Source of the DNA: Clostridium sp. CAG:678 | GTDB taxonomy: Bacteria > Bacillota > Clostridia > Oscillospirales > Acutalibacteraceae | Direction: 5' to 3' | NCBI GenBank assembly: GCA_000431535.1 | Contig: HF991793.1 | Span: 1-64,000, forward strand | Length of the DNA: 64,000 bases | Shown: positions 1-26,465 of the stretch, piece after piece | Layout: each line of letters begins with the position of its first letter | Position numbering within the stretch: position 1 is the stretch's first letter | Notes under the pieces: model-generated | Database searches by the model: none | What the model was told of the DNA's origin: nothing | Seen by the model: the letters and a program-made list of their open reading frames with translations, nothing else | Program-made: the position numbers and the translations under genes

Positions 1-84
1 CAAATCTGGGCGAAAGTCCCTTCGCAAGAGTTAAGCGATACGCTGGTGGAAGCGTTTCAGGACAAGCTCAAAAAAGACGAATAA
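1..84 (+). CDS. C-terminal fragment, possible tyrosine recombinase
   Basis: Only the last 27 residues before a TAA stop lie in the window. They read QIWAKVPSQELSDTLVEAF followed by a Lys-rich end. This resembles the extreme C-terminus of XerC/D-type tyrosine recombinases, where the catalytic Tyr sits in a QIYTHV-like motif followed by an amphipathic helix. Here the position that would be Tyr is Trp. The gene converges on the 3' end of guaA, a well-known insertion site for mobile elements, which supports the integrase reading. The fragment is too short to be sure of the family. Confidence 0.4.
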   Translation, partial: QIWAKVPSQELSDTLVEAFQDKLKKDE

Positions 85-94
85 GAACGACAAA

Positions 95-134
95 AAGCCC
101 TTAGCTATGAGTGCTTACCCACAGCTAAGGGCTT
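95..134. terminator. Bidirectional hairpin between the recombinase-like gene and guaA
   Basis: A perfect 12-bp stem (AAGCCCTTAGCT at 95-106 pairs with 123-134) with a 16-nt loop. Read on the minus strand it is followed by five T, so it can end guaA transcription. On the plus strand it follows the recombinase-like stop codon by 10 bases and has a weaker T run. Confidence 0.7.
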
Positions 135-15468: not shown

Positions 15469-15945
15469 TTATCTGAACAGAACATAAAAATAAGTGTGCC
15501 CTATGGAATTCATTCTTGGATACTCGTTCTTTGCCACCGGCGATAACGGATCAGACGCCACGAGATCGCTGCCGGATAGGGATATGCCGGACATGCTGCC
15601 ACGCTGCGCCGTAAACGCCATATAACTGTAACTGGCGCTGTTGCTGAAATCCGTTTGCTGAGGCGGGCTGTTCAGGCAATAAACGAACCCGAAAGTCGGC
15701 CTAAACGGGCAGTTTGTGACCACCGTTTGTTTCTGCTCGCCGTTTCCGAAATACACACCGTAATAATACGGCATATCAAACTTTTCTCTGTCTTCCTCAG
15801 AAAGATGGCACTGCAGATCCGTCGTGTGTTCAGACGCAAATGCGTCTATCTTTTCATTATCTGAATTAAAATCGGTCCTTTGCGGCTTATCACTGCCAAG
15901 CCAGCTTGAAAGACCCAGATAAGACGTTTTGTTTGTTGCACTCAT
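15469..15945 (-). CDS. Phage tail-fibre-like or receptor-end protein
   Basis: A 158-residue protein at the end of the structural operon. The first 35 residues (SWLGSDKPQRTDFNSDNEKIDA) resemble the N-terminus of many clostridial phage fibre proteins, which attach to the baseplate. The rest is Ser/Gly/aromatic-rich beta sequence with no recognised domain. At 158 residues it is short for a fibre and may be a minimal adhesin or truncated. A weak AAGG lies 10 bases upstream of ATG. Confidence 0.55.
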   Translation of the reverse strand: MSATNKTSYLGLSSWLGSDKPQRTDFNSDNEKIDAFASEHTTDLQCHLSEEDREKFDMPYYYGVYFGNGEQKQTVVTNCPFRPTFGFVYCLNSPPQQTDFSNSASYSYMAFTAQRGSMSGISLSGSDLVASDPLSPVAKNEYPRMNSIGHTYFYVLFR

Positions 15946-15981
15946 TCTATGATAACCTTACCTTTCTGCGCAATTTTACAT

Positions 15982-16563
15982 TCAGCCGGCAGATGCCGTC
16001 TGTTCCGCCTCGCCGCCTATTTTTTCCCAAACAGAAAACGGCAGTTTCAGGCGGTCCGATTCAAACCACCTGTAATCCAAAGAATCCAGAAAATCAAAGG
16101 TCAGCCCCGCGCCCGTAAACTGCGGCGCAAAAAAAGCGGGATAATCGTTATTATAAAGATCGGAAAACGCGGCAAGCGTTTCCTGATTAACCGGTGAAAC
16201 ATGCACCTTTTCCTGTAAATTTTCCACTGTATAATGATATCCAGGCGTACCGATCTCCTTTTCCCGAAATTCCTGCCGGCTCATAAAAAAGAATCCTTCG
16301 GAAAGGCGGCGGATAATATTTTCTTTCGTCTCCTGCTGCGTTGCCCCGCGATCCATATTCAAAAGATCACAGTACATCAAGATGCCCTCTTCGCCCATCG
16401 TATCCGTAAAAACTTCCGAAAGCGCCTGCTCCGCCCTGCCCAGCGCGGCAGAGACCGCAGCGGCATACGCTTTCAGTTCCGCGCGATCCCGGCTGCCCTC
16501 TGCTCCGCCGAGGCCTACGGTATCAAAAAGCGAAAAAAGCCTGCTGTATACCCCGCTATTCAT
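15982..16563 (-). CDS. Phage baseplate protein, Mu gp48 / YmfQ-like
   Basis: 193 residues, placed directly after the baseplate J gene as Mu gp48/DUF2313 proteins are. The sequence has the family's alpha-rich N-terminus (MNSGVYSRLFSLFD and an Ala-rich segment) and a C-terminal part that would contact the fibre. ATG at 16563 is chosen: AGGTGG sits 6 bases upstream, while an ATG six codons earlier has no RBS. Its start overlaps the end of baseplate J by 8 bases. Family call rests mainly on gene order and size. Confidence 0.65.
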   Translation of the reverse strand: MNSGVYSRLFSLFDTVGLGGAEGSRDRAELKAYAAAVSAALGRAEQALSEVFTDTMGEEGILMYCDLLNMDRGATQQETKENIIRRLSEGFFFMSRQEFREKEIGTPGYHYTVENLQEKVHVSPVNQETLAAFSDLYNNDYPAFFAPQFTGAGLTFDFLDSLDYRWFESDRLKLPFSVWEKIGGEAEQTASAG

Positions 16564-17629
16564 ATACATCCACCTGCACATCTTTCAAAACAAGATATTC
16601 CCCGGTGCGGCATGCCACAACGCCCTCATAAGAGGGATCTGCCGAGATTTCCGTAAACGCCGCGCCGCTGATACCGCTGACCGCCGCTGCAATGGACGAA
16701 ACGGGAATCTCCCTGCCGATACGCTGCGCCGAGCAGACTTCCCGGATCCGGGCTTGTGCCTCTTGCGCCAACCGTTCCTTATCCGCGCCCCGCATTGCCC
16801 GCACCGCAGCATAAACGGAAAATTCACTTTTCTGAGACAACGCCACGGCATAACCGGTGCCGCAGACTTCAAGTATACCAAGTTTATCGTAGATCTGTTC
16901 CAAAACATAGGGGCTCGGGAAATCGCCGTTTTCCGTGCGTACAAACAGCGTATACTCGTTAAATTCCGGATCCATAATAAAAAGCGCGTCTGTAATGGTG
17001 TCTATCGTCAGCACGATCTCTGCAAAAGACTTGGGATTCACGCCGTTGCTCACCGTATGATAGGAATCAACCACCCTGCTCCTGAGCGCCTCATCCGTTT
17101 CCCGATCTGCCCCGCCCGAAAACGCGGTTTCATTGGTTACGGAAGAAACAGATGCCGGCGGATTCACCAAAACGGTTACACTGCCCGGTTCTGCATTGAA
17201 CGCACTGCCCGCGGAAAGCGCCGTTGCCGCCGCCTGCACAGAAAGACTGCCGGCGGGTATAACGGCGGTTTCCTCCGTTGCAAACTGAATGAGCGGTTTG
17301 CCTTTCACCGAACAAACCGTGCCTTTCGGGATTTCCACATTGTTTTCCAGCTCCTGCGGCACGGAAAAGGTAAGCGTTCCTTTTGCGCTTGCCGCATTCT
17401 TGCGTTTTATACTGCGCATTGCGGCATGCCGGTCCAGATATTCGCCCGTGGCAGTCTGCGCAAACGCCTGCTTTAAGGCAAAATCGGCAGTGGTGCAGGC
17501 GGCGTAAATTTCGCTTGCCACGGCTTTAAACCGCAATTCCGTTTCCGGGTTATCTTTCGCGTATTCTCCGCTCTCATTAAAAAATTCCGTTTCCATGGAT
17601 TCCAAAATCTCATCATAAGTTATACTCAA
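16556..17629 (-). CDS. Phage baseplate J-like protein
   Basis: A 357-residue wedge protein of contractile-tail baseplates (P2 gpJ, Mu gp47, PBSX XkdT). Typical features are an acidic N-terminus, a Thr/Val-rich central beta region with GTVCSVKG and the conserved GGADRETDEALRSRV block near residue 170, and a C-terminal region. TTG at 17629 is the start and its TTGA overlaps the preceding stop, which indicates translational coupling. It sits between a gp25-like and a gp48-like gene, the canonical order. Confidence 0.85.
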   Translation of the reverse strand: MSITYDEILESMETEFFNESGEYAKDNPETELRFKAVASEIYAACTTADFALKQAFAQTATGEYLDRHAAMRSIKRKNAASAKGTLTFSVPQELENNVEIPKGTVCSVKGKPLIQFATEETAVIPAGSLSVQAAATALSAGSAFNAEPGSVTVLVNPPASVSSVTNETAFSGGADRETDEALRSRVVDSYHTVSNGVNPKSFAEIVLTIDTITDALFIMDPEFNEYTLFVRTENGDFPSPYVLEQIYDKLGILEVCGTGYAVALSQKSEFSVYAAVRAMRGADKERLAQEAQARIREVCSAQRIGREIPVSSIAAAVSGISGAAFTEISADPSYEGVVACRTGEYLVLKDVQVDVYE

Positions 17630-17910
17630 ACCGAAATGCTCACCAGCCTTTCTGCGCCGTTTATCAAAACCGTGATTGCATAGCCGGTTTCCGTTTTCTC
17701 AGCGCAGACGGGAAACATGCCGTTTTCGCCGCACAGTGCCTGCGCTGCGGCGCAAAGCGCATAAAGATTTTCCGGCTTTTTTGTAATTTTATAAAGATTG
17801 CTGCCGTAATCGCACTGCGGATAGAAATCACCCCGGTGCGTTTTCAGTGCCCTTGCCGTGTTTGCAAGCAAAAAAGATTCATATTCGTTTTCACTGTTAA
17901 AAACCGGCAT
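17626..17910 (-). CDS. Phage baseplate protein, gp46/gp25-like
   Basis: 94 residues. Segments DFYPQCDYGSNLYKI and a C-terminal beta pair (GYAITVLINGAERLVSI) fit the gp25/gpW/Mu gp46 baseplate family (PBSX XkdS position). It lies between the spike-like gene and baseplate J. ATG at 17910 has AAGGGG 8 bases upstream; a GTG three codons earlier overlaps the preceding stop and is an alternative. Confidence 0.7.
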   Translation of the reverse strand: MPVFNSENEYESFLLANTARALKTHRGDFYPQCDYGSNLYKITKKPENLYALCAAAQALCGENGMFPVCAEKTETGYAITVLINGAERLVSISV

Positions 17911-17915
17911 ATCTG

Positions 17916-18269
17916 TCACCCCTTTTCAAATTCTCCGTCCCTGTTGATCACAAGGGAATTAATGACCACACTGCCGTCATTTTTAAGCAGGATTCTTGCG
18001 CCGCCGAGCGATCTGATCTCAACCTCGCCCTGCGCAAGACCCTGCGTTTTCATTTTGGAGCCCGCCACCGCCGCGCCGGATGCACTGTTTACGATCAAAA
18101 CCTCTTCCCCCACCGGCAGACGAAAAGAATAACCGTAAGGCGAAAAGCATTCTGAAGTTCTGGACGGCAGCGATGAATTCGCCTCTGTAATATTCTCTGC
18201 GCTCAGCGTGACCACACCGTTTTCGGCGGCGCTTTGCTCCGGGTTTTTAAAATTCCTGCTCAGCCACAT
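17916..18269 (-). CDS. Phage baseplate spike-region protein, gp45/gpV-like
   Basis: 117 residues with an OB-like N-terminal half (YGYSFRLPVGEEVLIVN) and a short repetitive C-terminal beta region (VEIRSLGGARILLKNDGSV) typical of spike proteins that cap the tail tip. The family is inferred from this pattern and from position between the hub gene and the gp25-like gene. ATG 18269 with GGGGAGC upstream overlaps the hub gene by 23 bases. Confidence 0.6.
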   Translation of the reverse strand: MWLSRNFKNPEQSAAENGVVTLSAENITEANSSLPSRTSECFSPYGYSFRLPVGEEVLIVNSASGAAVAGSKMKTQGLAQGEVEIRSLGGARILLKNDGSVVINSLVINRDGEFEKG

Positions 18270-19206
18270 AATTGATCAGCTCCCCGTTTATTTCTTTTCT
18301 TAAGGTAACAGAAGTGGAAGTGCCGCCTGCGTTTTTCTTTCTGATCAGTGCGCAGACCTCAAATACGCCTTTTACACCCAAACGCTCCAGATCGGCATAC
18401 ACAAGATCCGCAAGGCACAGATCCGCATCCCCGGCAAGCATAACCGTAACGGTAAAATAGTTTTCCAGCGAACGCGTGATCTGCCGCTGTGCCTCCGCTT
18501 CCCTCTGCCACACCGGCAGGGAAGACAGATTGATGAGTTTTCTTGCGGATATGCCTTTTTCTGCCGCAAAGCGGCTTTCCAGGCGGTATACATATTTTTC
18601 GGCAGAATTCGTTTTATAATCTATCCTGCTGATCACACCGCTTTGATCCACCGTAACACATGCGCTGAGCATTTTTTGCGCATCCAGTGTTTTTACCTTG
18701 CCCGGCGTTTCAAACACACGCAATTCCATCTCCGGCGTAACATAGATGCTTTTGCCGCAGGCGTACTGCATAAATCTGTCTATGGCGCCAAAACAGCTCT
18801 GCCCTTTGCTGACCACATATTCAGACTGCGAAAACACCTCCGGCAACCCGCAGGAAAAGCCGAAAGGCCTTGCGTGATGATACCAAAGCTGCTTTGAGGT
18901 GGGGCAGTTATACTGACCGGGATACGCCTCGTTATCCACAAGCACCGCCGCGCCGGAACGCGCGTATACGAACAGCGTGTAACCGCTGTTATCTGCACGG
19001 ATCTGAATTTTATCGGCAGAGCCGTGAAATATTTTTTTACCGTTTTGAAAAGCATATACCGCCTGAATACTGCTGACAGCGGTTTCAAAATAAAGATACA
19101 GCCGCAAACCGTCGCATGCGGCAGCCAGTTCACTGGAAAGTTCATAGGACAGCACTTTAAAACCCTTTAATTTTTCTCCGCCGGAAGTATATAGTTCAAA
19201 TCTCAT
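18247..19206 (-). CDS. Phage tail hub protein, Mu gp44 / XkdQ-like
   Basis: 319 residues; order and fold pattern match gpD/Mu gp44/XkdQ hub proteins that close the tube above the spike: N-terminal beta domain, a central segment with SQSEYVVSKGQSCFGAIDRF, then ELRVFETPGKVKTL, and a C-terminal beta region containing GVKGVFEV. It starts with ATG overlapping the preceding TGA (ATGA). Without a tube gene in the operon, what it would dock on is unclear. Confidence 0.7.
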   Translation of the reverse strand: MRFELYTSGGEKLKGFKVLSYELSSELAAACDGLRLYLYFETAVSSIQAVYAFQNGKKIFHGSADKIQIRADNSGYTLFVYARSGAAVLVDNEAYPGQYNCPTSKQLWYHHARPFGFSCGLPEVFSQSEYVVSKGQSCFGAIDRFMQYACGKSIYVTPEMELRVFETPGKVKTLDAQKMLSACVTVDQSGVISRIDYKTNSAEKYVYRLESRFAAEKGISARKLINLSSLPVWQREAEAQRQITRSLENYFTVTVMLAGDADLCLADLVYADLERLGVKGVFEVCALIRKKNAGGTSTSVTLRKEINGELINYVAEQEF

Positions 19207-19715
19207 CTTATCCTTACCCTTTGCCCTTCCTGAAGATCAAAAGGCGTTTTAAAGCCGTTCAGTTCCATAATGCTTTCCGTTTTTACGCAATTGGCAGCAG
19301 CAATATCAAAGCAGTTCTCCCCGGCTTTGGCAAACACGAATGTGCGCGTTCGTTTATAGGTTCTGCCGCTTTTCTCTTCCGTAAATCCCAGTTCGTATGA
19401 GACGGAATCCTCCGCAGCGTTTTCCTTTATGCTTAAAGAAGAAAAATATGCGTAAAAAAACGTGCCGTCCGGCAGCATCAGCGGCCCCGCGCCCGGATCG
19501 TGATACAGAGCGCTGAGTGCTGCCGCAGTTTTTTTGCCGTCTTTTCCAAACAACTTGCCGCTTGCTGTTATTTTTGCGGCTTTTTGGGCGATCTCCTCCA
19601 CCGCGCTCCCCGCCGAAAGCAGGGAGCGCTCGCTGATATCCTTTGCCCATTTCACCGTAACGGCGGCAGGATTCTGCGGGAATTCAAGTTCCTTGTATTT
19701 AAGCCTAATCATCAT
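19203..19715 (-). CDS. LysM-containing phage tail protein, XkdP-like
   Basis: 170 residues. The N-terminal part (KYKELEFPQNPAAVTVKW) and the middle (GPLMLPDGTFFYAYFSSLSI) resemble phage baseplate proteins upstream of the hub; the last 45 residues form a LysM domain (FDIAAANCVKTESIMELNGF). In PBSX-type phages the LysM protein XkdP follows the tape measure; here no tape measure precedes it. Two consecutive ATG codons are possible starts (19715 or 19712). It begins 3 bases after a 28-codon reading frame. Confidence 0.7.
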   Translation of the reverse strand: MMIRLKYKELEFPQNPAAVTVKWAKDISERSLLSAGSAVEEIAQKAAKITASGKLFGKDGKKTAAALSALYHDPGAGPLMLPDGTFFYAYFSSLSIKENAAEDSVSYELGFTEEKSGRTYKRTRTFVFAKAGENCFDIAAANCVKTESIMELNGFKTPFDLQEGQRVRIR

Positions 19716-19718
19716 CTT

Positions 19719-19805
19719 TTATTCACCACCGACCGAAGGATCGTACCTTTTTGAATCCAGCCTTAAATATTCGGAAAGTTCATAAACAGCATCATATTCG
19801 TTCAT
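19719..19805 (-). CDS. 28-residue reading frame at the missing tail-tube position
   Basis: ATG at 19805 with GGTGATC two bases upstream, encoding an acidic, tyrosine-rich 28-residue peptide (MNEYDAVYELSEYLRLDSKR then YDPSVGGE) and ending 3 bases before the LysM gene. No family is recognised. It lies where tail sheath, tube, chaperone and tape-measure genes normally sit, so it may be a remnant of a deleted gene or a tiny real gene. Confidence 0.45.
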   Translation of the reverse strand: MNEYDAVYELSEYLRLDSKRYDPSVGGE

Positions 19806-19820
19806 CAGATCACCACCGTA

Positions 19821-20225
19821 TTATTCATCATGAAAAGTAAGGGCGCCGGAGAAAGTTACCGTCAGGCGCATTACAAAGCATTCGCATGCCTCATCCGCCC
19901 GAATACCGTTTGCGCCTATCGAAACAGGCGTATCACGGCACAACGCGCCGAATATTCTGCCTGCCGTGTGCTCAAAATCAAAACCGCACTGATCAAACGG
20001 AACGTATACATCGGCAAAAACAGTGATCTGCCCTGCCTGCACGTCCTCGCCAAGGGCGGCGGTCTGCGCGTTTGCCTGCAGCACACCGCAGAGCACAGCG
20101 GGCTGTTCCGGAAGGGTGGGCTTCTGAACAGGCGCAAACGCGGACATCACTTTAAAATCATGAAAATACGCGTCCGCCCGGATCCGTTCCAAAACAAGAT
20201 CCGTTATTGTTTTAAAATCCATCAT
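19821..20225 (-). CDS. Phage tail-terminator-like protein
   Basis: 134 residues following the connector and head-closure-like genes, the position of tail-completion proteins in PBSX-like phages. Mixed alpha/beta sequence starting MMDFKTITDLVLERI with a beta strand QITVFADVYVPFD. ATG at 20225 overlaps the preceding TGA as ATGA, indicating coupling. Family assignment is from position, length and general pattern only. Confidence 0.5.
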   Translation of the reverse strand: MMDFKTITDLVLERIRADAYFHDFKVMSAFAPVQKPTLPEQPAVLCGVLQANAQTAALGEDVQAGQITVFADVYVPFDQCGFDFEHTAGRIFGALCRDTPVSIGANGIRADEACECFVMRLTVTFSGALTFHDE

Positions 20226-20566
20226 TGCGCACCCCAAACCTTTCTTAAAACGCCCCAGTAAAACAATATTTCGCCGCCGGCAGAAACCTCTTCTTTCTTT
20301 TTGAAGATAAATTCTTCCTCCCCGAAAAGCACACGTGCGTTTTCCGAAAGGCGCATAATATTGTGGTTATACGGCCCGATAAAAGTAAAATAATCCTTGC
20401 TGACCCTGCCGGCAGGCGTTCTTTCCAATTCAAAATTGGATCGGTTGCTCCTCCATTTTTGCGCAATGACCGCAAAAAACGGAGTGGAGATCCATTCACC
20501 GTCTTTCAGAAAGACCTGTTTCCCTGCTTTCTGCAAGCCGTTTTTAATTTTAAGCGCCCGATTCAT
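20222..20566 (-). CDS. Phage head-closure-like protein
   Basis: 114 residues, basic N-terminus (MNRALKIKNGLQKAGKQ) then beta-rich sequence (DYFTFIGPYNHNI, EILFYWGVLRKVW). It lies between the head-tail connector and the terminator-like gene, the usual slot of the head-closure or stopper protein. Its ATG follows the preceding TAA without a gap. No sequence signature is recognised; the call is from gene order. Confidence 0.5.
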   Translation of the reverse strand: MNRALKIKNGLQKAGKQVFLKDGEWISTPFFAVIAQKWRSNRSNFELERTPAGRVSKDYFTFIGPYNHNIMRLSENARVLFGEEEFIFKKKEEVSAGGEILFYWGVLRKVWGAQ

Positions 20567-20917
20567 TTAAACACTCTTAAAAGCAAAAGCGCTGCTTTCC
20601 ACAAGATCCGCCGCACTGCTGCGCGCGGCAGCAAGGATCTGCCCGGCAGCGGCAGCCGCACCGGAACCGCCGCTGAAAGAAACATCCCCGGCGGTGAAAG
20701 AATCAAATCCGTCCGCCTGACTGCCGCAGCAGATCATATAATTTGCCTGCGCGGCGGCAAGAAACACGGCACGGTCGTCCGTTTCAAACGCTTTGTCTTT
20801 TAAGCGGGCGTAAACACTGCTGCACGCAAAATCAACCAGCGCCGCATAGCGCTCCGGCTCTCCTCCTGCCGCGCCCAGTTCTTTCAGGCATTCCAAAACA
20901 CCTGCTCTGTCTATCAT
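20567..20917 (-). CDS. Phage head-tail connector, gp6-like
   Basis: 116 residues, almost entirely alpha-helical and Ala-rich, directly after the major capsid gene, as for HK97 gp6/YqbG-type adaptors. ATG at 20917 is the start: AAAGGAG lies 8 bases upstream, whereas an in-frame GTG three codons earlier overlaps that site and cannot use it. Confidence 0.6.
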   Translation of the reverse strand: MIDRAGVLECLKELGAAGGEPERYAALVDFACSSVYARLKDKAFETDDRAVFLAAAQANYMICCGSQADGFDSFTAGDVSFSGGSGAAAAAGQILAAARSSAADLVESSAFAFKSV

Positions 20918-20937
20918 CGCCCGCACTCCTTTCCATT

Positions 20938-21930
20938 TTACTCGCCGAATTCAACAAACTTGCACGCATCGGGGAATATCTTTGAAAATCCCGCAATGGT
21001 GGTAACGGTAGCTCTTTCCAGCTGCCTGTCGATCAATTTGTCATACTCCGTTACGACGCCGCCGGCGCATACTTTTTCAAGCGCGGCATTTTTATCCAGC
21101 GCAATAATCTTATCGCCGCCGAGTGCATCGCATTTCACGATCTCCGCGCCAAGCGGCGTGATCATTTTACCCGTTCCGTGAAAATTCTGACCCGCCGCGG
21201 AATCCTTGAACTCCGCCATGTTGAGCAGGGCGGAAATGCTTGGCACGCCTGCGATAACCGTTGTCATCGTATAGGGGGAAATCTTCGCCCAAAGACTGAT
21301 CAGATCATTATATGTTACCGTATCGCCGGACGCGCTGATCACCTCTGAAGTGCCGTCATCCAGCGCGGCAATGGCATCCGCGAACTGGGAACGCGCAATA
21401 TACGAACCGATCTGCTTCAGTGTAACGGTGAAAAGATCCAGTTTTTGAAATTTGATTGCCTCATAGGACGCAACCAGCATTCTTCCTCGTTTATAAAGGC
21501 GGGTTAACTTGTCCTTAGCCCTGATGGTGGTCTCCGGAATGAAAGCGCCTTCACCAACGGCGGCAAGTTCCTTTTCCTCTTCGGACGGTACACTTTCCAC
21601 AGATCGGTAATCCAAAGAATCCACCTCCGTTGTGGTGGCAATGATCTTGGAAAGCAGATCCGCTTCCTCTACGCCCTGCTGCACGGCACGGCTGATATAT
21701 TCCGGAAACAAAACGGCGGAATCACTCGTCTGAAAGAATTTGGACACGCTGTCCGATCCGGCGCCGGAGACCTTAATGTCAAATCGTTTGAGCTGGCGCT
21801 GATAAGCGTCAAGCCCTTCCAATTCCGTGCCGATATAGTTTTCTGACGGATCCACCGCCTCAAGTGAAGCAGTAAACCCTTTGGAAGAGGCGTAAAGCCC
21901 CTTATCCAGTTTCAATGTATCAAATGCCAT
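20938..21930 (-). CDS. Phage major capsid protein
   Basis: 330 residues, length and context of a major capsid protein. The N-terminal 60 residues are a helical region that may act as a scaffold. Next comes the capsid body with EVDSLDYRSVE, KDKLTRLYKRGRMLVASYEA, a central helix and a C-terminal TVTTIAGFSKIFPDACKFVEF. ATG at 21930 follows GGGAGGG at good spacing; the open frame before it is spacer after the decoration gene. It is preceded by a decoration-like protein and a protease, as in many HK97-like heads. Confidence 0.8.
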   Translation of the reverse strand: MAFDTLKLDKGLYASSKGFTASLEAVDPSENYIGTELEGLDAYQRQLKRFDIKVSGAGSDSVSKFFQTSDSAVLFPEYISRAVQQGVEEADLLSKIIATTTEVDSLDYRSVESVPSEEEKELAAVGEGAFIPETTIRAKDKLTRLYKRGRMLVASYEAIKFQKLDLFTVTLKQIGSYIARSQFADAIAALDDGTSEVISASGDTVTYNDLISLWAKISPYTMTTVIAGVPSISALLNMAEFKDSAAGQNFHGTGKMITPLGAEIVKCDALGGDKIIALDKNAALEKVCAGGVVTEYDKLIDRQLERATVTTIAGFSKIFPDACKFVEFGE

Positions 21931-21947
21931 AAAACATCCCTCCCGGA

Positions 21948-22292
21948 TCAAAGTATAACGCCGATCGTTTTTTGATCGGTGTCTATCTCCACAACAAGGC
22001 GCGCCTGCTTGCCGGACGTCGCAATCTTCACACCGCCGCTGCCGTCTGCGGTAAGATATTGCCAGCCGCATTTCGGCGTGCCCGCAGTGTAAGAAAGTTT
22101 TGTATAGCCGCTGATCATAACCGGGGCAAACTTATCGCCGCCCTGCGTGGCTATGCCGGCAAATTCCTCATCCGCCTTGCTGTTTGAGATCAGCCCCGAA
22201 TCCGCAACCGTAACCGGGCTGCCTGCGGTGACCGGCTCTGCGGCAAGAAACGTGAGCACCTGCTCTTTAAATCCTTTAAATCCAACTTTCAT
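21948..22292 (-). CDS. Capsid decoration / DUF2190-like protein
   Basis: 114 residues, beta-rich, with GSPVTVADSGLI, a central EEFAGIATQGGDK and an all-beta C-terminus. Small beta proteins between protease and capsid genes usually decorate or stabilise the head. AGGAGG lies 6 bases before ATG. Confidence 0.65.
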   Translation of the reverse strand: MKVGFKGFKEQVLTFLAAEPVTAGSPVTVADSGLISNSKADEEFAGIATQGGDKFAPVMISGYTKLSYTAGTPKCGWQYLTADGSGGVKIATSGKQARLVVEIDTDQKTIGVIL

Positions 22293-22303
22293 CAGTTATC
22301 CTC

Positions 22304-23269
22304 CTAAATTTTGAACTCGCTCAGCGCGCCTTTTGCCTTCTGCTCTTTCTGCCTTACAAGCTGCGGAGCAGGTTTTTCACGCCGCGCGCGCTGCTTTTCA
22401 AACGCCTCTTTAAAACTTACAAGTTCCTTTGCCGTCATGATATCGGCAACGCGCTTGAAAATCTCTGTATCCAGTTCCGGCAGTTCCCTGCCGCACAGTT
22501 TTACCAGATCCCGCACCAGTGTTTTTCTGTACTCTCTGCCGAGGGCGGCGTCATCGCGCAGCTCATCCATCATCTGCACAAGATAAGCCGCCTCCCCGTC
22601 CGAAACGGCAGTGCCGCCGGATCTTAATTTTTTAAGAATATCCTCTGTCATCGTACCGTCCTTTTCCATATCAAATGCTTTTTCCACACCTGCGTTTCTC
22701 TGCGCAGGCACTGCCACAAAACTGAATTCATATGCGTCGCACACATCATCCAGAATCGTATAACACAGTTTTCCGCCGTACGTGCCGCCCGGCTTATGGC
22801 CGCAGTATTCCTTGCTTTTTTCCGCGCCGCAGACGGAACACACCCGGCTTTTTGCGCTGCAGGAAACGGAAACCTCCTTTTTAATCCCGGCGTCAATATC
22901 CCGGATCAGCGATTCGTTTTCCGGCGTTCGAACCATATACGCTTTTGCCCGCAGGGCAACGTAATCCTCTCCGTCCGCCGTTTTTTTGCCCGGTATTTTT
23001 TCAAGGCGTGTGTCAAACACTCTTGCTGTCTGATCCTCCGCCTTCATGGAATGATCCTTGATGCCGGTTTTGCCCACAAAAAGGTTTTGCAGCGCGCTAA
23101 GCGCGTTTACGGAAAACTTTTCAAAATCCCTGTCTATCTCATTGTCACACAGCGTGACCTCAAACGCATACAGTTCGTCTGCCGAAAACGCGCGGCGTGT
23201 AAAAGCGCGGATCTTTTCGTAATCGCTTTGGTCAGGCGTGTATGCCTTAACGGTAAATCTATCCGTCAT
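22304..23269 (-). CDS. Phage prohead protease / morphogenesis protein
   Basis: 321 residues. The N-terminal half (about 1-190) resembles XkdF-type head-maturation proteases, with VGKTGIKDHSMKAEDQ, AKAYMVRTPE and VSCSAKSRVCSVCG followed by EYCGHKPG, a probable zinc-binding Cys/His knot seen in this class. YEFSFVAVPAQRNAGVEK follows. The C-terminal helical, charged third may be a scaffold. ATG 23269 has GGAGG 6 bases upstream and overlaps the portal gene by 11 bases. Confidence 0.75.
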   Translation of the reverse strand: MTDRFTVKAYTPDQSDYEKIRAFTRRAFSADELYAFEVTLCDNEIDRDFEKFSVNALSALQNLFVGKTGIKDHSMKAEDQTARVFDTRLEKIPGKKTADGEDYVALRAKAYMVRTPENESLIRDIDAGIKKEVSVSCSAKSRVCSVCGAEKSKEYCGHKPGGTYGGKLCYTILDDVCDAYEFSFVAVPAQRNAGVEKAFDMEKDGTMTEDILKKLRSGGTAVSDGEAAYLVQMMDELRDDAALGREYRKTLVRDLVKLCGRELPELDTEIFKRVADIMTAKELVSFKEAFEKQRARREKPAPQLVRQKEQKAKGALSEFKI

Positions 23270-24398
23270 TACAGCCCTCCTTAAGCAGTTTTTCAGCCTG
23301 GGCGGTGTAAAGCCGCGCCCTGGCATGCTCGGTCTCATCCTGAAGCGTAATATCTGCCCATTTCACGCTGACCGGCAGATCAACACCGCGGATCTCAAGA
23401 TACTTTCGCGCGATCCTGATGAGCACCGGCGTAATGATTTTTCTGTAAGCCTCCAGCTCCGTGGTAAGCATATCCGCCTGCTGCTGGCTCATGCGTTCCG
23501 TAGTGGACCATGAAAAACCAAGCATATACGGGGGCAGCCCCGTTTTGGCGATGATCTGCTCCAAGAGCTGGCGAACCGGTATTTCGCTGGAAAGCACATT
23601 GTTGTCCGCCCCGATCACCTTTACGCTCACATCGCCCACGGCAACAAAATCTTTAACGGTATCCCGGCTGCTCATGGCGTCCTGCCACGCGCGGCAGATC
23701 TGCTCCGCCCTGTTTTTGGCTACGCCGGCATCCGTGTCTCCGTCGGCAGGCTTATAAGTTACGGCGTACCGCAGATTCCCCGCGTGTTCCCAGTTTTCTC
23801 CGATCGTGTGATAGACCGTCATCAAAACATCTGAAATAAACGGCAGCCCTCTTAGAAGACTGGTGCCCAGAATACTGCCCGGCTCCGGATTCAGCGCGGA
23901 AAAAACAATCAGATCCTGCCTTGGCAGTTTTTTGCCGCCGTTGTAGAATTCAAGATCCAGATCATTCTGTGCCCGTTTCACTTCAAGCGCGCTCAGTTCG
24001 CCGTTATAAAGCGCGTAAAAGCCGTTGTCATCCGCAATCATTTCCCCAACGGCGCTGCCGTATGTAAGCAGATCCGAAAGATACGTGGAAACGAACGCGC
24101 TGATTCCCGTCTGATTGCCGCCCACGTCCACGGCCTCAAAAAAGCCGTTCATTTCGGCGTCTATCGCCGCGCTGCCCGTTTCAAACGTAAAATCGTTCAT
24201 CAGGCGGATGATTTTCAGCACGGCAGCGTCTATCACGGGCACATTTTCCCGGAGCGAGCGGTAAACACGATTGTTCAGCCCCAGATTTGCAAAACTGCCC
24301 ATGCGCGCATAACGCCGGTTTGAAAACGCACTCGTCTGCACTGCCGCTGCCGCGGTCTCTTTTGCTTTGCCGGACTTTCGCTTGCCAAACAAGCCCAA
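23259..24398 (-). CDS. Phage portal protein
   Basis: 379 residues, placed between large terminase and protease. Portal-like features are the N-terminal VIDAAVLKIIRLMNDFTFET region, a central segment around PGSILGTSLLRGLPFI, the clip/stem helix VAKNRAEQICRAWQD, and MLGFSWSTTERMSQQQADML with the C-terminal crown helix. A TTG start at 24398 is chosen: AAAGGA precedes it, it begins at the characteristic GLFGKRK, and it lies 4 bases after the terminase stop. The upstream open frame runs within terminase. Confidence 0.8.
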   Translation of the reverse strand: MGLFGKRKSGKAKETAAAAVQTSAFSNRRYARMGSFANLGLNNRVYRSLRENVPVIDAAVLKIIRLMNDFTFETGSAAIDAEMNGFFEAVDVGGNQTGISAFVSTYLSDLLTYGSAVGEMIADDNGFYALYNGELSALEVKRAQNDLDLEFYNGGKKLPRQDLIVFSALNPEPGSILGTSLLRGLPFISDVLMTVYHTIGENWEHAGNLRYAVTYKPADGDTDAGVAKNRAEQICRAWQDAMSSRDTVKDFVAVGDVSVKVIGADNNVLSSEIPVRQLLEQIIAKTGLPPYMLGFSWSTTERMSQQQADMLTTELEAYRKIITPVLIRIARKYLEIRGVDLPVSVKWADITLQDETEHARARLYTAQAEKLLKEGCNDG

Positions 24399-24402
24399 AT
24401 CC

Positions 24403-25659
24403 TCACATCCTTTCCACCGCAAAGGTATAAATATCCTCGCTTTTTCCGTATAAAACGGTAGAAACAAAATAGCGGATATCATCCATTGCGTGGTCGTTTT
24501 CTTTTTTCGGCGAATCCCTTTTTATATCGTTGTCCCAGCGGTAAACGGAAAATTCGCGGATCGCATCCTCACACTCGGGATAAAAATAAATATCCTCTTC
24601 TTTAAGCGCGCGGCAGACCAGATTGATGCCCTTTAAAACATCGTTATCCGCCTTAATGACCCGGTATGTTCCGTAGCGGCGCACCGTTTGAGCAAAACTT
24701 GCGGCAGACGGATCTATGATCAGCGCCTCTATCTTCCTGTTGCCGGCAAGGGCGCAAAGGCGCTCATAATATTCCTCATCCGTTAGCTGCACGCCCGTAT
24801 CCCTGGCAGAATGGTAATATTCGCCGATCCGGTACCACTTTGAGCCGCTCTTTCCCCAAAGGCCCAGCGAAAACGGATTCACCGTGCCGTAATCGCAGGA
24901 AAGATAATACTGCGAAAAACCGCCGCTGCTTTTTTTGATATGCCGCTTTGCGCTGAACATTGGGTAGACCAAACCGTCCGCCGCCACCCATTTGCCCTCT
25001 ATAAACCGCTCGTAAAACGCACCGGAATACAGATTTTTATATCTGCTTATGACCGCGCGTGAAAGGGATGGGTTATCCTCCATCGTAAAATGGAGATAGA
25101 GCATTTTTTTCTGGTTTCTTTTTAAGATCCATTCATTGTAGAACCAGTGAAACGGATGCTCCGGATTGCAGTTGAACCAGTATTTGGCGTCCTCCAGCGA
25201 GCATCTTGCAAGCGCTTGTTCCACAAAAGATCTGGGCATCAGGGCAGCTTCGTCCAGCAAAACGCCGCCCAGCGTCATGCCCTGAATCAAAGCGGCGGAG
25301 GATTCATCGCGCCCGCCGAACAAATAAAACCGGTTTCGCCTGCCGCCCCTTTCTATCTCAATCAGGTTGCGGCTCAGTGTATAATTGCAGACAAAGCCGA
25401 GGGAAGTTAAAACGGGGATCAGCGGCGTTACCACATTGCGCCTGAGCGAGGCAATCGTTTTGCCGCAGATGGCAAAAGATGTTTCGTTAAAGCGGTAAAA
25501 CGCCCAGCTTATAAATGATATACTCATACAAAGCGTTTTTCCGGAACGCACGGCACCGTCACAGATGAGGCCGTTTTTATCCGCCGCGGGGCTGCCCGAA
25601 CACCACCACGTTAAAACGGCAAGCTGTTTTTTGGAAAAGGGATAAAATTTATTCGCCAT
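24403..25659 (-). CDS. Phage terminase large subunit, PBSX type
   Basis: 418 residues. The motor ATPase has the Walker A variant CDGAVRSGKT and Walker B with catalytic Glu GVLLDEAALM. The nuclease domain shows acidic residues in LSCDYGTVNPF, EALIIDPSAAS and the C-terminal DHAMDDIRY. All expected catalytic residues seem present, so it looks competent. ATG at 25659 is preferred to a GTG three codons upstream. It overlaps the small subunit by 11 bases. Confidence 0.9.
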   Translation of the reverse strand: MANKFYPFSKKQLAVLTWWCSGSPAADKNGLICDGAVRSGKTLCMSISFISWAFYRFNETSFAICGKTIASLRRNVVTPLIPVLTSLGFVCNYTLSRNLIEIERGGRRNRFYLFGGRDESSAALIQGMTLGGVLLDEAALMPRSFVEQALARCSLEDAKYWFNCNPEHPFHWFYNEWILKRNQKKMLYLHFTMEDNPSLSRAVISRYKNLYSGAFYERFIEGKWVAADGLVYPMFSAKRHIKKSSGGFSQYYLSCDYGTVNPFSLGLWGKSGSKWYRIGEYYHSARDTGVQLTDEEYYERLCALAGNRKIEALIIDPSAASFAQTVRRYGTYRVIKADNDVLKGINLVCRALKEEDIYFYPECEDAIREFSVYRWDNDIKRDSPKKENDHAMDDIRYFVSTVLYGKSEDIYTFAVERM

Positions 25660-25981
25660 ATTCCTCACGCAGCGCAGCGGCGGCGTTGCCGGCGCTCTCT
25701 TCCAGCGCGCGGTAAAAACTCAGCGGCTCAGAAGACTCCGTTTGTGAAAATTCCCATAATTTTTCAAGCGCTTTTATACGGTCAAAAAATTTGATTTCCA
25801 TGCCGCCGCCTTTCGGTTTCTTGATCTCGCTGATATTGAAAAGATCATAGCCGGGCAGTTTTTCAAGTATCTCTTCCTCATTTGCAAAAAGGAGCGCGGC
25901 AGCGTCCCGCACATTGCCGAAAGCAAGCTGCCGGAATCCGTCCGCAATCTCCTCCCGAAGTGTTTTCTTTTTTCTTCCCAT
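25649..25981 (-). CDS. Phage terminase small subunit-like protein
   Basis: 110 residues, basic N-terminus (MGRKKKTLREE) and helical body, directly upstream of and overlapping the large terminase. It would recognise DNA for packaging. No clear helix-turn-helix can be named by eye, so the call rests on position and size. GGAGG lies 5 bases before ATG. First gene of the phage operon. Confidence 0.65.
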   Translation of the reverse strand: MGRKKKTLREEIADGFRQLAFGNVRDAAALLFANEEEILEKLPGYDLFNISEIKKPKGGGMEIKFFDRIKALEKLWEFSQTESSEPLSFYRALEESAGNAAAALREEYGE

Positions 25982-26063
25982 ATCCGCCTCCGTTTGCAGT
26001 TTTGAAAGGTCCTTTCACCCTTAAGGCGGAAAACGGAGTTTTCATAGCATAAACAGGCTATAA

Positions 26064-26157: not shown

Positions 26158-26465
26158 TTACTTCATAACGAACTGCGCAACGCCGTCTTTATCAAAAGAA
26201 ACATTTACTGTTTTTCTTGCCTTTTTGCCGTCCTGAAAAGTAACGGTTATCGTCACCTCGTCAACCGGCAGTTCGCTTTTGTCCGTATCCGGGTCGGCAA
26301 GGAGGGTATCCACTGCTTTTTCAGGTTGGTAATAAACGCTTGACAAATTCAAAATATCTTCCGCGTCATGTGCGTTGCCAAGGTGAAGAAACTTATTCAA
26401 AACAGCAGTTTCGAATAAGTTTCATATTTATCCCTAAACAGCTCATCTGTTATTTCTTTTTTCAT
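26158..26465 (-). pseudogene. Broken sigma-70/ECF-like gene fused to an unrelated tail
   Basis: From ATG 26465 (GGGAGG upstream) the frame encodes MKKEITDELFRDKYETYSKL and stops at 26397. In the next frame the sequence continues FLHLGNAHDAEDIL, which is the conserved region 2 end of ECF sigma factors, so one frameshift breaks a sigma gene. After EDIL the expected region 2/4 sequence is absent. Instead there is an acidic, beta-type stretch ending VTITVTFQDGKKARKTVNVS and a stop at 26158, resembling the C-terminus of a secreted protein. It looks like a deletion scar joining two genes. A shorter TTG-started 80-residue product from 26400 is possible. Confidence 0.55.

What the first reader, a model, noticed from the sequence alone, without database searches (positions are those of the whole stretch)
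15469..25981. Compact phage structural cassette with head and baseplate but no tail tube, sheath or tape measure
Fifteen tightly overlapping, intact genes run terminase, portal, protease, decoration, capsid, connector, head-closure-like, terminator-like, [28-codon frame], LysM protein, hub, spike-region, gp25-like, baseplate J, gp48-like, fibre. The sheath, tube, chaperone and tape-measure genes that belong between the terminator-like and LysM genes are absent, as are lysis, replication, repressor and integrase. Yet no gene is frameshifted and terminase catalytic motifs look intact. This suggests selection to keep the set, for example a domesticated packaging device, a helper-dependent satellite, or a particle of unknown function. 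It sits between terminators in a housekeeping stretch.
Basis: partly seen in the sequence, partly recalled or inferred. Interest (0 to 1): 0.8.

Follow-up and report, generated by a model that had tools for sequence, protein, structure and literature searches.

The report
Domesticated phage head with vanishing tail
A genus of uncultured gut bacteria carries, in most of its species and mostly at one chromosomal site, a well-kept set of phage genes for a DNA-filled head and a baseplate but no tail tube, which most likely makes a tiny DNA-carrying particle; related bacteria show the tail shrinking in steps.

Summary
In detail: terS–fibre, 15469–25981 (−), open genes, no tube, sheath, chaperone or tape-measure gene between terminator and LysM gene. 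It is no recent deletion. 52 of 60 species of the genus have the portal, essentially one copy each; 43 of 52 loci carry all 15 core genes in one order with a median 93-bp gap (the other nine end at contig ends). All genes are under purifying selection (ω 0.09–0.24), including the "28-codon frame" (ω 0.18). TerS lacks its N-terminal half, the loss proposed to define gene-transfer-agent (GTA) terminases.

Relatives in 44 of 167 sampled genera of the order form a series: sheath+tube; tube only; tube fused to the terminator; terminator only (this genus); no terminator; head+hub; head only. A model built only from this genus's 28-codon ORF finds, among 38,127 other-genus ORFs, C-termini of proteins in the tape-measure slot (21 of 26 hits; the best 15 all there). 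So the ORF is most likely a tape-measure remnant that shrank with the tail.

Best reading: a GTA-like, tubeless head–baseplate particle. Closest known: FpGTA of Faecalibacterium (2026); homology to it could not be tested. Packaging and transfer are inferred.

The parts
26004..26019 (-). core of a conserved element in the terS leader (GGTGAAAGGACCTTTC)
   Evidence: only match at up to 1 mismatch in the own genome; a looser motif lies in the terS leader of 37 of 122 loci versus 24 of 1871 cassette tiles
25649..25981 (-). terS, 110 aa, lacks the N-terminal half where phage TerS has its helix-turn-helix
   Evidence: Terminase_2 match covers profile 64-128 of 141, weak E 0.024; four other-genus relatives tried match from position 1
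24403..25668 (-). terL, ATPase and nuclease motifs present by eye (motifs recalled)
   Evidence: PHROG/Pfam; dN/dS 0.087
23259..24482 (-). portal
   Evidence: phrog_30703 E 8e-113; dN/dS 0.106
22304..23338 (-). probable prohead protease
   Evidence: phrog_16951, unknown function, E 8e-92; name from gene order
21948..22292 (-). decoration-like protein (found in 30 of 52 genus loci)
   Evidence: phrog_4588 virion structural protein; count
20938..21930 (-). major capsid protein
   Evidence: phrog_3922 E 3e-86; Phage_capsid_4; start
20567..20926 (-). head-tail connector (adaptor-like)
   Evidence: conserved position; phrog_541 E 0.097 only
20222..20566 (-). head-closure-like protein
   Evidence: conserved position; no family hit
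19821..20237 (-). tail terminator
19719..19805 (-). 28-codon ORF, candidate residual tape-measure protein
   Evidence: found in 38 of 43 complete genus loci; dN/dS 0.18; HMM from the genus alone hits the tape slot of relatives
19203..19715 (-). LysM baseplate ring protein (tube-like/Dit-like N-domain)
18247..19206 (-). baseplate hub
   Evidence: phrog_177 E 1.4e-6
17916..18269 (-). spike-region protein
   Evidence: phrog_25991 unknown function E 2.7e-8; position
17626..17919 (-). gp25-like wedge (by position)
   Evidence: no family hit
16556..17629 (-). baseplate J wedge
   Evidence: Baseplate_J 1.6e-34
15982..16581 (-). gp48-like (by position)
   Evidence: no family hit
15469..15945 (-). fibre-like protein
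   Evidence: N-terminal 44 aa match phrog_33092, unknown function, E 1.6e-7; position

Best explanation
A domesticated, vertically inherited GTA-like element. Its genes build a small HK97-type head, filled by a terminase whose TerS has lost sequence recognition, so it most likely packages chromosomal fragments without choosing its own DNA. The neck (connector, closure protein, terminator) is followed directly by the LysM ring, hub, spike and wedges: the tail tube has zero rings and the sheath is gone. The roughly 28-38 aa ORF is the C-terminal stub of a tape-measure protein, kept because that end is needed to nucleate or plug the LysM/hub core. The particle would look like a short-tailed phage built from contractile-phage parts. 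SHOWN: gene content, order, near-universality in the genus, purifying selection, absence of the TerS N-terminal half, homology of the small ORF to tape-slot proteins, the series of tail architectures. INFERRED: that particles form, carry DNA, package at random and deliver it, and what the small ORF does.
For: Portal in 52 of 60 genus species, plus baseplate genes of one more. 43 of 52 loci complete for 15 of 15 core genes, median length 10,456 bp, gap median 93 bp. Downstream neighbours coaX, DUF1015 or M28 peptidase in 34 of 43 complete loci; cassette and DUF1015 distances correlate (30 loci, Mantel r 0.60, 0 of 999 permutations as high). dN/dS 0.09-0.24 in every cassette gene and 0.18 in the small ORF over up to 11 independent species pairs. 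TerS lacks the N-terminal half: a genus member (L088) matches Terminase_2 only from position 57 at E 8e-7, the window from 64 at E 0.024; four other-genus relatives tried match from position 1. RcGTA's authors proposed a 'GTA-type' TerS on exactly this loss (passages of PMC6854486). [quoted passage not shown]
Against: No particle, packaged DNA or transfer has been seen for this genus. No lysis gene was found: holin PF05105 in 9 of 60 species, none in the own genome; endolysins were not searched. Four species (G002, G007, G038, G051; 88-97% complete) have the DUF1015 neighbour without the cassette beside it, so it is dispensable; three more portal-negative genomes could not be judged. Upstream neighbours are not conserved: the hydrogenase-like and NuoF-like genes were found in only 3 of 55 mapped loci, window included, and 9 of 43 complete loci show none of the downstream neighbours in the fetched stretch. 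Four loci have split genes: L087 (protease), L100 (five genes), L110 (portal), L226 (terL); assembly error or decay was not separated. A crude test finds a long TerS N-terminal part in 1 of 50 genus loci but also in only 27 of 76 other loci, so short TerS is not special to the genus.
Confidence: 0.66

Rival explanations
1. A PBSX-like killing particle: the head and baseplate are kept to puncture and kill relatives, with the packaged DNA irrelevant.
For: Gene order matches the PBSX plan (recalled); baseplate and fibre genes retained and under selection; PBSX packages DNA but is said to act as a tailocin (PMC12946183 discussion).
Against: The sheath and tube, the parts that contract and pierce, are what is missing; relatives that keep only head genes could not kill by a baseplate.
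Confidence: 0.12
2. A helper-dependent satellite (like capsid-forming PICIs): it makes its own heads and borrows a tube, sheath and lysis from a resident or infecting phage.
For: Head genes complete and tube missing; three of 60 genus genomes (G011, G015, G051) match a phage tube or sheath model elsewhere; 22 of 24 tail-poor relatives' genomes have no Baseplate_J, so their heads have no baseplate of their own.
Against: No integrase or replication gene in the cassette; one copy per genome through the genus; 57 of 60 genomes match neither of the two models (other tube types not searched); it keeps its own baseplate, which a tail thief does not need.
Confidence: 0.1
3. A decaying prophage remnant that happens to be old.
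For: Absent from several species; four loci have split genes.
Against: dN/dS 0.09-0.24 in all genes, 43 complete loci with the same order, and lengths of 9.9-10.8 kb.
Confidence: 0.04
4. A complete but two-locus GTA, as in FpGTA: a divergent tube gene, lysis and further parts are encoded elsewhere in the genome.
For: FpGTA has a second operon about 125 kb away in one strain; the tube type of relatives escapes Pfam, so an unlinked copy was not excluded genome-wide.
Against: No PF04984 sheath anywhere in the genome; the tape stub is too short to span two tube rings by the usual ~1.5 angstrom per residue rule (recalled).
Confidence: 0.12

Closest known systems
FpGTA of Faecalibacterium prausnitzii (Borodovich et al. 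2026, PMC12946183)
   Same: compact head operon found in all 12 Faecalibacterium genomes examined there; TerS without obvious DNA-binding domain; baseplate and fibre genes, sheath not mentioned (0 occurrences); thought podovirus-like; no replication genes
   Different: FpGTA is in two operons (10.5 and 5.5 kb) with holin and endolysin in the second; here head and baseplate are one 10.5-kb operon without lysis genes. Sequence homology not tested: no FpGTA sequence was reachable.
RcGTA and other alphaproteobacterial GTAs
   Different: RcGTA keeps a tail tube and tape measure and is siphovirus-like (recalled)
PBSX of Bacillus subtilis and contractile phages such as Mushuvirus
   Same: order terS-terL-portal-protease-capsid-neck-...-hub-wedges (PBSX recalled; Mushu annotation read)
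   Different: sheath, tube, chaperone and a 795-aa tape measure (Mushu) are replaced by a 28-codon ORF
Capsid-forming PICIs
   Same: own head and packaging genes, incomplete tail (recalled)
   Different: no integrase in the cassette, own baseplate, near-universal in the genus

Membership tests
Gene transfer agent | no self-replication or integration genes in the cluster | tested here: met
   no such PHROG hit among the 16 cassette ORFs and one neighbour; flanks look like housekeeping genes (by eye)
Gene transfer agent | vertical inheritance, one copy, purifying selection | tested here: met
   correlation with flanks moderate (0.60)
Gene transfer agent | TerS without N-terminal DNA-binding domain | tested here: met
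   1 of 50 genus TerS scored as keeping a long N-terminal part in the crude test
Gene transfer agent | packages random host DNA | not testable with these tools
   needs particles
Gene transfer agent | transfers DNA to recipient cells | not testable with these tools
   needs culture
FpGTA | homologous head and baseplate proteins | not testable with these tools
   no FpGTA sequence reachable; an attempt to tag a Faecalibacterium genome with a phage protein gave at best 80% identity
FpGTA | second unlinked operon with lysis genes | tested here: inconclusive
   baseplate is in the same operon; PF05105 holin absent from own genome; other lysis families not searched
Contractile tail / PBSX-type particle | tail sheath | tested here: not met
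   PF04984 absent from own genome, present in 2 of 60 species
Contractile tail / PBSX-type particle | tail tube | tested here: inconclusive
   none in the cassette; PF09393 absent from own genome, but Pfam misses the tube type of relatives
Capsid-forming PICI | integrase and mobile, patchy distribution (feature recalled) | tested here: not met
   no integrase hit in the cassette; 52 of 60 species
Tailocin | tail without head and terminase genes (recalled) | tested here: not met
   terminase, portal, capsid present and under the strongest selection

The most novel reading that the evidence does not exclude
An order-wide family of domesticated phage heads in which the tail has been dismantled step by step and in parallel: sheath, then tube as a separate gene, then tube fused to the terminator, then no tube, then no terminator, then no baseplate, with the tape-measure protein shrinking from about 170 to 28 residues alongside. 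In the window's genus the result is a DNA-filled head seated directly on a contractile-phage baseplate, with a 28-residue tape stub, delivering random host DNA: a podovirus-like architecture derived from a myovirus.
Probability: 0.5. Interest if true: 0.9.

Novelty: new variant of a known kind. Interest (0 to 1): 0.8.

Why it matters
It would add a large natural experiment on what a tailed particle can lose and still be kept by selection. It ties the tape measure to tail length in evolution, offers a very small tape-measure protein, and suggests how a short-tailed form can arise from a contractile one. It also points to candidate machinery for gut Clostridia whose capsid-packaged chromosomal DNA has been seen without a known source: the 2026 study looked in four genomes showing GTA-like read patterns and reported a strong candidate operon in one, a Faecalibacterium. 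Gene exchange by domesticated heads in the gut becomes directly testable from sequence.

Tried and rejected
Recent deletion: rejected, since no fetched genus locus carries the module. Decay: rejected by dN/dS. Second operon elsewhere in tail-poor relatives: of 24 such genomes the window's J protein found one (G294) and Pfam Baseplate_J two (G294, G408; the G408 locus is cut by its contig end), so loss rather than relocation is favoured. Identifying Faecalibacterium by a Mushuvirus transposase failed, so FpGTA homology stays untested. Rfam: nothing at gathering threshold in the window, only chance-level hits on the terS leader at a permissive threshold. A consensus fold of the leader from 23 genus sequences gave no structure. 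A transcription anti-terminator helps control the Caulobacter GTA (PMC11150451, abstract and passages); whether the leader here works so was not tested. The first tube model had absorbed fused proteins and so matched two genus terminators weakly (L090, L104); a model from sheath-bearing loci only removed those hits. The gp48 profile also hits J genes; labels were given by best hit. The genus name is not given by the tools. Paper searches (listings, with three papers opened in part) showed no report of this family; only FpGTA came near. They cover open-licence PubMed Central text only.
Full report

HOW WIDELY. The portal is found in 52 of 60 species of the genus (one match each, except G050 with an extra 34-residue match and G058 with a split gene). 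One of the other eight, a 68% complete genome, has spike, gp25, J, gp48 and fibre beside DUF1015. 52 genus loci were mapped: the window, 50 of the 51 other portal-positive species (G018 was not fetched) and one further species (G433). Of these, 43 have all 15 core genes (decoration left out of the core; it is in 30 of 52); the nine others stop at a contig end. Terminator-to-LysM gap: median 93 bp; 42 of 43 lie between 6 and 120 bp, one (L100, with split genes) is 358. 34 of 43 complete loci show coaX, DUF1015 or M28 in the fetched stretch, in L063 on the other strand; 9 show none; the window's upstream neighbours were found in only 3 loci. So the downstream site is shared by most, not all. In four genomes DUF1015 is present without the cassette beside it (G002, G007, G038; G051 with little upstream sequence).

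SELECTION. Nei–Gojobori dN/dS over up to 11 independent species pairs of the genus: terL 0.087, capsid 0.087, portal 0.106, protease 0.124, closure 0.134, terS 0.141, spike 0.149, J 0.157, fibre 0.163, connector 0.183, small ORF 0.184, LysM 0.185, hub 0.186, gp48 0.220, gp25 0.221, decoration 0.238, terminator 0.238; flanks 0.05–0.09. dS is near or above 1 for many genes, so the ratios are approximate, but all are far below 1.

TERMINASE. Four TerS of other genera match Pfam Terminase_2 from position 1 (E 4e-6 to 1e-17; one is a fragment). In the genus TerS starts after that half: L088 matches positions 57–134 (E 8e-7) and the window 64–128 (E 0.024). A crude sequence rule finds a long N-terminal part in 1 of 50 genus loci and in 27 of 76 others; many sheath-bearing relatives are short too, so the loss seems to have happened more than once. 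That this half is the helix-turn-helix rests on the known domain order of phage TerS. [quoted passage not shown]

A SERIES OF TAILS. A portal profile (A1) finds the element in 82 of 396 genomes of the order, 44 of 167 genera, one match each except G403 with a weak second; in a class-wide draw of 392 genomes all 8 matches lie in the own order. Architectures: A, sheath, 25 loci, with a separate tube in 23 (the other two are cut); B, separate tube without sheath, 10; C, terminator of 225–272 aa with a tube-like C-terminal part, 13 plus L156 placed by hand; D1, terminator alone (about 134 aa), the window's genus; D2, no terminator and no tube, six loci; E, head plus LysM and/or hub only, 10 (L067, cut, belongs to the genus); F, no LysM, hub or J, 13 after leaving out eight stretches cut by contig ends (L193 has a fibre-labelled ORF). 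The sheath is a true sheath (phrog_279 1.5e-48, Pfam 5e-15). The tube matches phrog_27038, a family of unknown function, and other structural or tail families only at E 4e-5 to 9e-4, so 'tube' rests on position, size and these hits. Because the first tube model had absorbed fused proteins, I rebuilt it from 22 tubes of sheath loci: it finds 9 of the 10 B tubes at E up to 0.01 (not L114), and in the fused proteins it matches only the C-terminal half, clearly in L155, L173, L190 and L216, weakly (E 0.03–0.5) in L187, L198, L213 and L218, and not at all in the other six; terminator models match the N-terminal half where they match. In genus loci it finds nothing at E up to 1. On a tree of TerL+portal+capsid (92 rows, 14 of them genus loci; quick method) the genus is one clade (support 100) and the seven states need at least 15 changes; class A alone needs at least 4 on well-supported branches. 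Sheath loss in several lineages is the natural reading, though the tree cannot orient changes.

THE 28-CODON ORF. It ends at the LysM start and reads …SEYLRLDSKRYD…. By a motif rule it is seen in 42 of 47 genus loci with a LysM gene, and in 38 of 43 complete ones. A profile built from 42 genus sequences only was run against 38,127 stop-to-stop ORFs of the other loci: 26 hits at E up to 10, of which 21 end at the LysM start; the best 15 are all there (best E 1.3e-4, most between 0.01 and 10); shuffled ORFs gave 5 hits, best 0.35. In sheath-bearing relatives the motif is the C-terminus of a protein lying between chaperone and LysM, where phages keep the tape measure. Lengths: A median 173 aa (77–289, found in 19 of 25), B 42–50 with a ribosome-site start (6 of 10), C 25–71 (11 of 13), D median 33 (29–56; the ORF was found in 43 of 53). 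Mushuvirus has a 795-aa tape measure whose C-terminus lacks this motif: a result against a universal motif, so the tape identity rests on slot and on length following the tail.

HOW IT PROBABLY WORKS. Capsid, portal and terminase fill a head with whatever DNA the blunt TerS lets in; connector, closure protein and terminator close the neck; where a tube would start, the LysM ring, itself of tube-like fold, joins hub, spike and wedges, with the small ORF's product in the core. No helper, lysis gene or trigger was identified. The terS leader holds a conserved element that may be the control site.

COMPARISON. FpGTA is the nearest described system: 40-nm heads without identifiable tails, 8.4–9 kb chromosomal DNA, stationary-phase lysis (sections 4, 9, 10, 26 of PMC12946183 read). 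Whether the present family and FpGTA are homologous could not be tested. I file this as a new variant of GTA-like elements, with packaging and transfer unproven.

Noticed in passing
window 25990-26050 (-), terS leaders of relatives: A conserved element (CTATTAGTGAAGGGnnTTTTT-like) sits in the terS leader of 37 of 122 loci over several families versus 24 of 1871 control tiles; in L099, L103 and L105 it looks by eye like a hairpin followed by a T run.
   Followed up: partly
L112-L114 (MT835508, MT835769, MT835952): Records filed as human faecal phages hold cassettes of this family: L112 head genes only, L113 with sheath, tube and hub, L114 with tube and hub (both cut). L112 has bacterial-looking genes around it, so it is probably a chromosomal contig.
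   Followed up: partly
L157 4715-5161: A sheath-bearing relative has a phage holin (PF05105, E 5e-34) right after its gp48-like gene, so some members may carry their own lysis; a single-sequence search found no copy in the other loci.
   Followed up: partly
window 26158-26400 (-): An 80-codon ORF between the hydrogenase-like gene and terS has no relative in the other loci mapped.
   Followed up: no
L161, L164, L171, L176, L179, L193, L203, L204: Other genera of the own family keep terminase-to-neck genes next to housekeeping genes without LysM, hub or J; none of these eight genomes has a Baseplate_J elsewhere: DNA-packaging heads with hardly any tail.
   Followed up: partly
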